A stretch of 64,000 nucleotides of DNA, taken from NCBI GenBank assembly GCA_009760855.2, contig WPIO01000025.1, forward strand, positions 1,533,501 through 1,597,500, given 5' to 3'. Made by a program: the position numbers and the translations under genes. The notes under the pieces are model-generated. The model did not search any database and was not told the DNA's origin. It was given only the letters and a program-made list of their open reading frames with translations. This document shows positions 38,701 to 41,700 of the stretch, piece by piece. Every line of letters begins with the position of its first letter. Positions within the stretch are counted from its first letter, which is position 1. The stretch comes from Cristatella mucedo (Eukaryota; Bryozoa; Phylactolaemata; Cristatellidae).

Positions 38701-41700
38701 ATTCTTGTGGTTTAGTAATATTATTAAATTTGTATAACGCCCTCAGAGAACTGACTCTCTCTTTCTCTCTCTCTCTCTGTGCACTTTACAGATGCTGCAT
38801 TTAAAGCATTACCAAATGTTTGGTGGTAATATCGGCAAACAGCAGGCTATGTGTAAGCAGGTACATTCACATGAAGGACGAATCACAAAGACCCATCAAA
38901 CGCTGTAACAAAAAGGGTGCGTTTTAAGATTCTTTTTGAATGCCTTTCTGCCATCACCAGTCCGTGCAAGCGTAACGTCTTCGGTTGTCAGAGCCTCGCA
39001 GTCGTTCTCTCTTCGCATGTTTCTCAATTTTTCAAAAGTGCAACTTTAATAGCCACTCTGCGAATCGTCCAATTGATGCAGCGCTGTCTTGGGAATTTCA
39101 GAGATCAAAGCGGATGACTGCATCCCCGACGTTGACGCCCACGAGGGACTCGTGCACCAGGACGCGGCGGAGCCGGACGAGTGGGTGGAGCCTGATGAGC
39201 GGAGCGGTGCAGCAACCCGATTCGATCCGCCAAGTCCCGTACCTACGCCGCACATCGCCACGAGGCCCGCTACCAGGGGCAGCCGTCGCGTTTCTGCGGC
39301 GGTGGAGGCGGCAGCCACAAGCAACGGCGTTGACGCCTTGCTCGCAGGAGACTTGACAGCTCGATGTCCACCAGATATGCTGGCCTCTCGCATCTACGTT
39401 GCGTGCTCGGGCCAAGGTGAGAAGTACGCCCCTTTTACACCCCGAGGGCACTGGGCTTCTCTCCGGGGAAAGTTTGGCATTTTTGCGACTTACTGGTACA
39501 AAGCTACAGCAGCCTCTCAAGCCCTGTTCACTTGGCGATTTAACGAATCGAGTCAACGCTCCGGTCAAAAGTACGCTGCCGCATTACCGTGTACAGTGAA
39601 TGGTTGCATGAATGTCGTAAAAGCGGAGCGGGCGCGCCGAAGTAACTCCCTCCCCTTTCGTGGCATACGCCAACAATTCAACTCATTTCGATAGCGGCAC
39701 GGAACCCCTCTGCTCCAATATTCGTCAACGTTATATCTTTTTTCGGAAGTAGGTCTTCTGTGCACAGGCGGCAGGTTTTATGAATTTCGTCAGTCGGACG
39801 GCCAAGTGCCACTCTGGGAGCCAGCATGGCTTGCTGTTAATAATTAATAATAACTAGGGCTATACCGAACACTTGATTTCTACTATTCAGCTGAATATGA
39901 ATATTTGACCAACCTACTCGACCGAATATAAATGGTGTACAGAATAGGTCTATAGACAGCATCTTGAAATTTAAAATGTAAGCAACCGCTGGAGTTCAGC
40001 AAATGTATTACATTAACTAAAAGTAAAATGGTAACTGCACGCAATTTATGCATGTCGTATTATTCTAATGATAGAGTTACTTCAGTCTACTTGATAGACT
40101 AGCCACTTACGAATAACCAGATGTCACGTAGCTAATATATGCATCTGGTCTGACTATTAATATTCCATTGAATACTGAATAGCTATTTGACCCTCTATTA
40201 GGCCCAGAAGTAAATGCAAAGTTAATGTTTGATATAGCTCTATTAATACACATGCATTGTTATGGCACCTTAAGACAGCTAAACATTTGTTAAGGCAATT
40301 AGGACATGTTGCAAAAGAAACATATTAGTCAGCTACGGGTAACATGAATGGTATGAGCAAGCAGAAGCCCACAAGGGACAATTCACGCTGATGGAGCAAA
40401 TGCTTTAAGGAGCAGGTGAGATTTTAGATCCTTTTTTTAATGTCATAGAGACGGAGCCGCGTTGTGAGTCGGGAGCGAGTTTTAGGATTGAAAATTTAAA
40501 AACTGAAGGCACGGTTTCTAAAGGATTTGAGGTTAGTTTGAGGCACAGCTAAATGACTCGATTCATAGGGGCGGGTAGTAAAATGCAGAGCTTGTTCAGA
40601 AGGGTTTTGGATAGGTAGGATTGCTAGAGATAATTGAGGGAGCTACAAGTGATTGATGAAAGATTGATGTCATTATATAGGATGCCAATGCAGGTGGGCG
40701 AGAAGTGGCATAACTAGTAAGCCGTTCTTCTCATACACTTTAATGAAGTTTATTTATATCAAATTAGGAATGTCATAAATACATTCTGCAAGGGATTAAG
40801 AGAGTTTGACGCACTAGAAAGCAGAGAGGAACCAAAGTAGAGCAGCGGTTCTCAACCTGTGGGTCGCGACCCCGTTGGGGGTCGAACGACCCTTTCACAG
40901 GGGTCGCCTAAGACCATCGGAAAACACGCATTTCCACATTTTGCACAACATAGTTTTATGGTTGGGGTCACCAAAATATGAAGAACTGTGTTAAAGGGTC
41001 GCGGCACTAGGAAGGTTGAGAATCACTGAACTAGAAGTAAAGCAGTGTATCATGTGGAGGTATGTAAAAATAGATTGTGCTTGGTGATGGGTATGCGGGA
41101 CGACAGTCAAGTCTGCTTACTTTCTGGTAACATTGCTTTAATTCGGGCCTGCTTGTACAGGGATATTACTTCAAAATTGGTCCATGCATTTGTGACATCC
41201 GTATCGACTACTGTAACTCAATACTTGCTAGTTTACCAGGATATGCAATAACGGACTTACAGTGGGTGCCAAACTTGGTAGTTAGGCTGCCTCTTGTGAA
41301 TGTAGCAGTTGCCACATCACACCACTTTTAGCCAGCCTCCACTGGGTCACAATCAAGCAGCGTTTCGAATTCAGGGTTCTGTCACTCATTTCTATGTCAT
41401 TAATTCTGTGGCTCCAGCCTGCCAATCAGAACTAATCCTCCGCCAGAGTTTATAAAGCCTCGAACAAATCTGAAATCCATTGGAGACCGCACCATAAGTT
41501 CGTACTATCTTCAAGCCTGAATATAACTCCCGTTTGACGTTACGACATTCCCTGACTTGACATGATTTAAAAAGAAGCTACAACGTATCTGTTTATCACA
41601 GCAGTTGCTAGGTCCTTGCGATTTGTCTTTTATGTGCTTATGTGTGCTGACAGTGTGCATGTTACTGTAAGCTGCCGCTCTGACGGTACACGCACGACGA

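What the first reader, a model, noticed from the sequence alone, without database searches (positions are those of the whole stretch)
40843..41028. SPIN-like hAT element in an invertebrate genome: likely horizontal transfer
The 186-bp element has SPIN-type termini and the internal signatures GGGTCGCGACCCC and AAAGGGTCGCGGC. SPIN elements are known from mammals, reptiles, frogs and a few invertebrates (triatomine bug, pond snail, planarian) and are accepted cases of horizontal transfer. High likeness here, against far more decayed neighbours, suggests late arrival.
Basis: partly seen in the sequence, partly recalled or inferred. Interest (0 to 1): 0.7.

Follow-up and report, generated by a model that had tools for sequence, protein, structure and literature searches.

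The report
SPIN-type transposon family, invertebrate genome
A short jumping-DNA remnant in an invertebrate genome belongs to a large old family whose non-coding sequence closely matches repeats found in rodents, which is best explained by DNA passing between distant animals; it is a further case of a known kind.

Summary
The element is real: 186 bp at 40843-41028, with hAT-type inverted ends and an 8-bp target duplication (6 of 8 matching). It is no lone arrival. A second copy lies at 23558-23744, and genome-wide patterns (572 Mb) find 1,126 left ends, 1,370 middles and 971 right ends (reversed controls 0, 1, 0), implying roughly 1,800 copies at about 10% mean divergence. Ends and middle are similarly numerous, so most copies appear to be one short non-autonomous derivative. 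Target duplications of 8 copies match at 52 of 64 positions (control mean 16) and fit nnnTAnnn, the Buster-group target. Five mouse or rat stretches printed in four unrelated papers match it (18 of 19; 18 and 19 of 20; 20 of 22; 60 of 69). The host is an invertebrate: COX1 fits the invertebrate mitochondrial code and CpG is not depleted. SPIN-like identity and horizontal transfer are well supported; 'late arrival' is not, since the family is decayed and about as diverged as the better-kept repeats nearby. No SPIN transposase was found: 5 of 69 Buster-type loci were looked at, four only downstream; one has a SPIN end just beyond its own terminal repeat, probably a nested insertion. Species, donor, direction and date are unresolved.

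The parts
40835..40842 (.). left target-site duplication AAGTAGAG
   Evidence: 6 of 8 match the right flank AACTAGAA; central TA
40843..41028 (+). 186-bp non-autonomous SPIN-like hAT element (MITE)
   Evidence: 4.8% from the majority consensus of 8 copies
40843..40858 (+). left terminal inverted repeat CAGCGGTTCTCAACCT
   Evidence: family consensus ends agree 15 of 16
40898..40923 (+). subterminal stretch shared with mouse and rat primers (CAGGGGTCGCCTAAGACCATCGGAAA)
   Evidence: 18 of 20, 19 of 20 and 20 of 22 against printed rodent primers
40927..40948 (+). middle stretch; its consensus occurs 1,370 times genome-wide with up to 3 mismatches
40961..41028 (+). right subterminal stretch and right terminal repeat; the family consensus aligns here with a stretch of a printed mouse FDH gene sequence
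   Evidence: 60 of 69 columns; 971 right ends genome-wide
41029..41036 (.). right target-site duplication AACTAGAA
23558..23744 (+). second, more decayed full-length copy of the same family (187 bp)
   Evidence: 19 of 186 sites differ from the consensus
23550..23557 (.). left target-site duplication of the second copy, CCATAGGG
   Evidence: 5 of 8 match CTGTAGTG at 23745-23752, central TA in both

Best explanation
This is a non-autonomous (MITE) member of a SPIN-like hAT family of the Buster group. It keeps the two ends that a transposase recognises and no coding sequence. A SPIN-type transposase supplied in trans cut such copies out and pasted them into 8-bp targets centred on TA (duplications shown; enzyme inferred). 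The family entered this invertebrate lineage by horizontal transfer (inferred from non-coding similarity to rodent copies), spread to roughly 1,800 copies, most of them the same short derivative (pattern counts), and then decayed to about 10% mean divergence (estimated). The copy at 40843-41028 is one better-preserved fossil.
For: Inverted ends. 8-bp duplications: 52 of 64 positions over 8 copies against control mean 16.1, sd 3.5, maximum 32 in 20,000 draws; nnnTAnnn is the published TcBuster target, and Buster and SPIN are grouped together (PMC3499496, passages). 1,126 left ends, 971 right ends and 1,370 middles against controls 0, 0 and 1, implying about 1,817, 1,801 and 1,650-1,680 copies at about 10% divergence (for the middle the divergence was assumed from the ends). 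Printed rodent DNA matches the family consensus at 18 of 19 aligned bases, 18 of 20, 19 of 20, 20 of 22, and 60 of 69 columns; the best ungapped matches elsewhere in the 64 kb are 16 of 20, 14 of 20, 14 of 20, 16 of 22 and 38 of 74. Invertebrate mitochondrial code.
Against: No SPIN transposase was found: of 69 scored Buster-type matches (890 first-look candidates) 5 were looked at, four only on the downstream side. Four end in another family's terminal repeat. The fifth (L052) also ends in another repeat but has a SPIN left end right beyond it; that is read as a nested insertion, not proven. No curated SPIN consensus was at hand; that the rodent stretches are SPIN/URR1-type repeats is recalled, and they were found by searching for such strings. 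Horizontal transfer was not tested with a host phylogeny or with host-gene divergence.
Confidence: 0.85

Rival explanations
1. Vertical descent: the family was present in the common ancestor of this invertebrate and mammals and both kept it.
For: Buster-group transposase matches are numerous in this genome (69 scored of 890 candidates).
Against: Non-coding MITE sequence should be unrecognisable after such a time, yet 18-19 of 20 bases agree with rodent stretches, while copies within this one genome have already drifted about 10%.
Confidence: 0.04
2. Transfer ran the other way or through a third party: SPIN lived in invertebrates and tetrapods received it from them or from a shared vector. This is a variant of the best explanation, not its opposite.
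For: The family here is decayed and abundant; nothing found fixes a direction.
Against: None found here; no relative of this host was available, so neither age nor direction could be compared.
Confidence: 0.3
3. An independent Buster-type family that merely resembles SPIN at its ends.
For: Other Buster families here have partly similar ends, for instance CAGGGGTGTCCAAC and AAAAGGTTGCCGACCCCTG.
Against: Likeness to rodent stretches goes beyond the 16-bp ends: 60 of 69 columns on the right side and 18-20 of 20-22 bases at 56-81 on the left. In the five loci looked at, the best 16-nt match of the other Buster families' own ends to the SPIN right end is 11 or 12 of 16.
Confidence: 0.03
4. Assembly contamination with vertebrate DNA.
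For: None found.
Against: 1,126 left ends, the 100 listed places spread over many contigs; copies have their own insertion sites and duplications; CpG positions are changed at 11 of 160 against 68 of 1,326 elsewhere (sums, mostly best-matching copies), without the strong CpG decay expected in a vertebrate.
Confidence: 0.01

Closest known systems
SPIN_NA elements of tetrapods (rodent copies)
   Same: Terminal and subterminal sequence. The 8-bp nnnTAnnn duplications fit the Buster group, in which SPIN is placed.
   Different: This derivative is 186-187 bp with a middle stretch for which no rodent counterpart could be compared. The rodent label SPIN/URR1 is recalled.
SPIN-like hAT of the snail Biomphalaria glabrata (PMC5440852, passage seen)
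   Same: Invertebrate host, about 1,000 copies; the passage says that DNA elements there are not recent and that no intact transposases were detected.
   Different: No sequence of it was available to compare.
SPIN in Rhodnius prolixus (PMC11614815, passages seen)
   Same: Invertebrate host with SPIN_NA families attributed to transfer from tetrapods.
   Different: That paper calls the transfer recent and counts fewer than 5 SPIN copies within piRNA clusters; its genome-wide number was not seen. Here roughly 1,800 decayed copies.
TcBuster (Buster group hAT; PMC3499496, passages seen)
   Same: 8-bp nnnTAnnn target.
   Different: TcBuster is autonomous and active. Of the TcBuster-like transposases here (28-34% identity to the recalled protein), the five looked at belong to other families.

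Membership tests
hAT superfamily, Buster group | 8-bp target-site duplication of form nnnTAnnn | tested here: met
   8 copies: 52 of 64 positions match, against 16 of 56 and 16 of 72 for 7 or 9 bp; control mean 16.1 of 64. Central TA on both sides in 5 of 8 (both window copies, L004, L005, L006), on one side in L002 and L003, on neither in L007. Six of the 8 were picked as best matches.
hAT superfamily, Buster group | short terminal inverted repeats | tested here: met
   15 of 16 in the consensus; 81% over 21 nt in this copy
SPIN | terminal and subterminal sequence shared with vertebrate SPIN_NA | tested here: met
   all five printed rodent stretches that were compared match; that these rodent repeats are SPIN is recalled, and they were found by searching for such strings
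SPIN | closest match to a curated SPIN consensus (Dfam/Repbase) | not testable with these tools
   no eukaryotic repeat library; Gilbert 2010 not held
SPIN | autonomous partner with SPIN transposase and SPIN ends | tested here: inconclusive
   69 scored Buster matches of 890 candidates; 5 loci looked at, one on both sides and four downstream only, each ending in another type of repeat, one of these with a SPIN end directly beyond; no SPIN transposase was available as a query
horizontally transferred element | similarity between distant hosts above neutral expectation | tested here: met
   by argument from divergence within this genome; no host-gene comparison was made
horizontally transferred element | patchy distribution and conflict with host tree | not testable with these tools

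The most novel reading that the evidence does not exclude
SPIN has a deep, high-copy history in invertebrates of which this genome is one witness, and invertebrate lineages like this one, rather than tetrapods, were a reservoir from which tetrapod SPIN invasions were seeded.
Probability: 0.15. Interest if true: 0.6.

Novelty: new member of a known kind. Interest (0 to 1): 0.35.

Why it matters
SPIN is a much-cited case of transposons crossing between phyla. An invertebrate host with roughly 1,800 decayed copies adds a data point on how wide and how early that spread was, and could help to decide the direction of transfer once the host is named and relatives are compared. It does not change the picture of how such elements work.

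Tried and rejected
Exact scans of viral contigs and prokaryote genome contigs with SPIN patterns: 0 hits. Rfam and tRNA scans of the window: 0. The hAT transposases found with PF05699 (138 matches, 766 candidates, 150 scored) were considered as the partner and set aside: by eye Ac/ZBED-like, and none of the 20 loci fetched has a SPIN end within the 3.2 kb held (some 5' ends may lie outside). Buster loci L049, L050, L051 and L053 end in another terminal repeat (L049 itself; the others 18-19 of 19 to it). L052 first looked like a transposase joined to a SPIN end; between the two lies another family's terminal repeat, so I read it as a different Buster element inserted into a SPIN copy. Its upstream side, which would prove this, could not be fetched. 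A planarian host was rejected: ATA and AAA do not follow the flatworm code. The sample of 20 stretches of 10 kb held 1 copy (15 of 161 aligned sites changed), too few for a count of its own. Papers: the searches showed no held paper printing a SPIN consensus, but most of the listed papers were not opened. Of the 3 papers, PMC2837401 (also mouse Ate1) was not opened; of the 38 papers (30 listed, nearly all for a 10-letter string) none was opened. One search (SPIN, hAT-Charlie, horizontal transfer, transposon, flatworm) found 0 papers. Gilbert 2010 is not held. Opened for passages with nothing decisive: PMC5791352, PMC4054807 (reports 385 SPIN elements in a turtle), PMC5379729.

Full report
Observation. 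The 186-bp element is present at 40843-41028 with the quoted signatures. Its ends form an inverted repeat of 21 nt at 81%.

Host. The window is G000:C177:1533501-1597500 of a 572,011,866-base genome in 688 contigs. Contig C688 (21,008 bases) carries mitochondrial COX1. I compared its codons by eye with the best solved homologue (alignment). TGA falls on Trp at 11 of 12 places. ATA falls on Met at 9 of 11 (the others on Leu and Ile). AAA falls on Lys at 2 of 2. The 8 AGA/AGG codons fall on Ser (3), Ala (3), Thr (1) and Gly (1), none on Arg. This fits the invertebrate mitochondrial code and argues against vertebrates (AGR stop), tunicates (AGR Gly) and flatworms or echinoderms (ATA Ile, AAA Asn). 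CpG observed/expected is 0.83 in the window and 0.81 in 200 kb of other stretches, at 47.3% G+C, unlike a vertebrate. By eye the COX1 looks lophotrochozoan; this was not tested and the species is not known. The window also encodes an NWD1-like WD40 protein.

Family. With the 186-bp element as query the genome search scored 40 of 2,242 first-look candidates, the best other copies at 91%. Pattern counts with up to 3 mismatches give, for a 31-nt left end, 557 + 569 = 1,126 places (80 exact; reversed control 0 + 0); for a 36-nt right end, 484 + 487 = 971 (55 exact; control 0 + 0); for a 22-nt middle, 668 + 702 = 1,370 (control 1 + 0). The exact places were counted by eye in the lists, which show exact places first. 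Under a Poisson model with one rate, the share of exact matches implies about 10.1% and 9.7% mean divergence and about 1,817 and 1,801 copies; at that divergence the middle implies about 1,650-1,680. The model ignores indels and differences between copies, and the three counts were not paired place by place. Still, ends and middle occur in similar numbers, so most copies appear to be the same short derivative, and long copies can be only a small minority.

Less selected copies agree. The one copy in 200 kb of regularly spaced stretches differs at 15 of 161 aligned sites, and the second window copy at 19 of 186. The copy at 40843 differs at 9 of 186, and six best-matching copies at 3.8-5.9% (biased low by choice and because they make up the consensus). 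At CpG positions 11 of 160 bases are changed and at other positions 68 of 1,326 (sums; same bias), so there is no strong CpG decay of the vertebrate sort.

Insertion mechanism. Flanks of 8 copies (two in the window, L002-L007) match at 52 of 64 positions for a length of exactly 8, against 16 of 56 for 7 and 16 of 72 for 9; flanks shifted at random give a mean of 16.1, sd 3.5 and at most 32 in 20,000 draws. L005 and L006 have perfect duplications. L001 is the window copy itself, and L008 was left out because its match stops 6 bases short. Five of 8 have TA at the centre on both sides, two on one side, L007 on neither. The published TcBuster duplication is nnnTAnnn, in a paper that also puts SPIN in the Buster group (PMC3499496, passages). 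Cut-and-paste by a transposase acting in trans is inferred from this anatomy.

Link with mammals. No repeat library was available, so I searched paper texts for element-like strings and found rodent sequence printed for other reasons: two mouse Ate1 screening primers, both reverse primers of the same arm (PMC2767504, passage); a Kcnq1ot1 primer from a study of stem-cell-derived motor neurons (PMC6221546, passage; mouse by recall); a rat lncRNA primer (PMC5739704, passage); and a sequence in the description of FDH knock-out mice (PMC8376875, passage). Against the family consensus these match at 18 of 19 aligned bases (the difference being a C/T that also varies among copies here), 18 of 20, 19 of 20, 20 of 22, and 60 of 69 columns with 8 mismatches and one gap. 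Elsewhere in the 64 kb the best ungapped matches are 16 of 20, 14 of 20, 14 of 20, 16 of 22 and 38 of 74. The stretches were found by searching for such likeness, so their number measures no frequency, and coming from different loci they do not show the layout of one rodent copy; but agreement well inside the element, beyond its ends, is not expected by chance. That these rodent repeats are catalogued as SPIN/URR1 is recalled.

Horizontal transfer. Copies inside this one genome have drifted about 10% from their consensus, yet non-coding family sequence agrees closely with rodent stretches where it can be compared. Vertical descent since the split of this invertebrate from mammals should not leave that. 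Published parallels: SPIN in Rhodnius attributed to transfer from tetrapods (PMC11614815, passages) and a hAT with SPIN identity, about 1,000 copies, in the snail Biomphalaria (PMC5440852, passage). Direction, route and date are open.

Age. 'Late arrival' is not borne out. Among 41 other repeat pairs of 100 bp or more in the window, median identity is 77.8% and the best of the 30 longest pairs reach 85.5%; the SPIN pair has 84.5%. The LINE piece just downstream (41103-41661) is 69-73% identical to its relatives, so some immediate neighbours are indeed more decayed. The family is on the younger side of local repeats but within their range. A hAT that looks much more recent exists in the same genome: 55 of 138 PF05699 matches share one score (76.8 bits), 15 of these with open frames of 635-642 codons; it is a different family.

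Transposase. Five were looked at, one on both sides and four downstream only. L049 ends in CAGGGGTGTCCAAC-type repeats with a perfect 8-bp duplication, read off the printed flanks; L050, L051 and L053 share its right end (19, 18 and 18 of 19). L052 ends in a related but different repeat, and directly beyond it lies a SPIN left end in reverse orientation (model positions 1-72, E = 1.9e-18). The remaining 64 were not looked at.

Verdict. A real, decayed, abundant, non-autonomous SPIN-like family in an invertebrate, best explained by horizontal transfer; a new member (host) of a known kind. I cannot exclude that this host is already on record as having SPIN, since its name is unknown here.

Noticed in passing
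G000, loci L029-L048: A separate hAT family: 55 of 138 PF05699 matches have the same 76.8 bits, 15 of these with open frames of 635-642 codons, which suggests recent activity; Ac/ZBED-like by eye.
   Followed up: partly
L049 335-3045 (G000:C55): Buster-group element with TIR CAGGGGTGTCCAAC and, by eye, a perfect 8-bp duplication TGTTACAA; three more loci share its right end at 18-19 of 19.
   Followed up: partly
L052 about 768-839 (G000:C144): A SPIN left end directly beyond the terminal repeat of a different Buster element: probably a nested insertion; the other side could not be fetched.
   Followed up: partly
window 55576-57708 and 59624-60376: NWD1-like WD40 gene (PF25469 44.6 bits, cut-off 27, in the first stretch; weak WD40-type matches in the second).
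   Followed up: partly
window 18100-18573, 30710-31068, 36242-36849, 41103-41661: Decayed L2-type LINE pieces by eye; the first reaches RVT_1 at 34.4 bits.
   Followed up: no
window 50341-50452: Degenerate GGGTTTA heptamer array, 15.4 copies at 69% matches, resembling a telomere-type repeat inside the contig.
   Followed up: no
G000:C166:4375626-4376390 and C83:2826-3735: COX1-like stretches outside the mitochondrial contig, C166 with 6 TGA and no other stops: possible mitochondrial inserts.
   Followed up: no
G000:C688: Mitochondrial contig of 21,008 bases, large for an animal (recalled norm 15-17 kb); 44% G+C in the COX1 stretch.
   Followed up: partly
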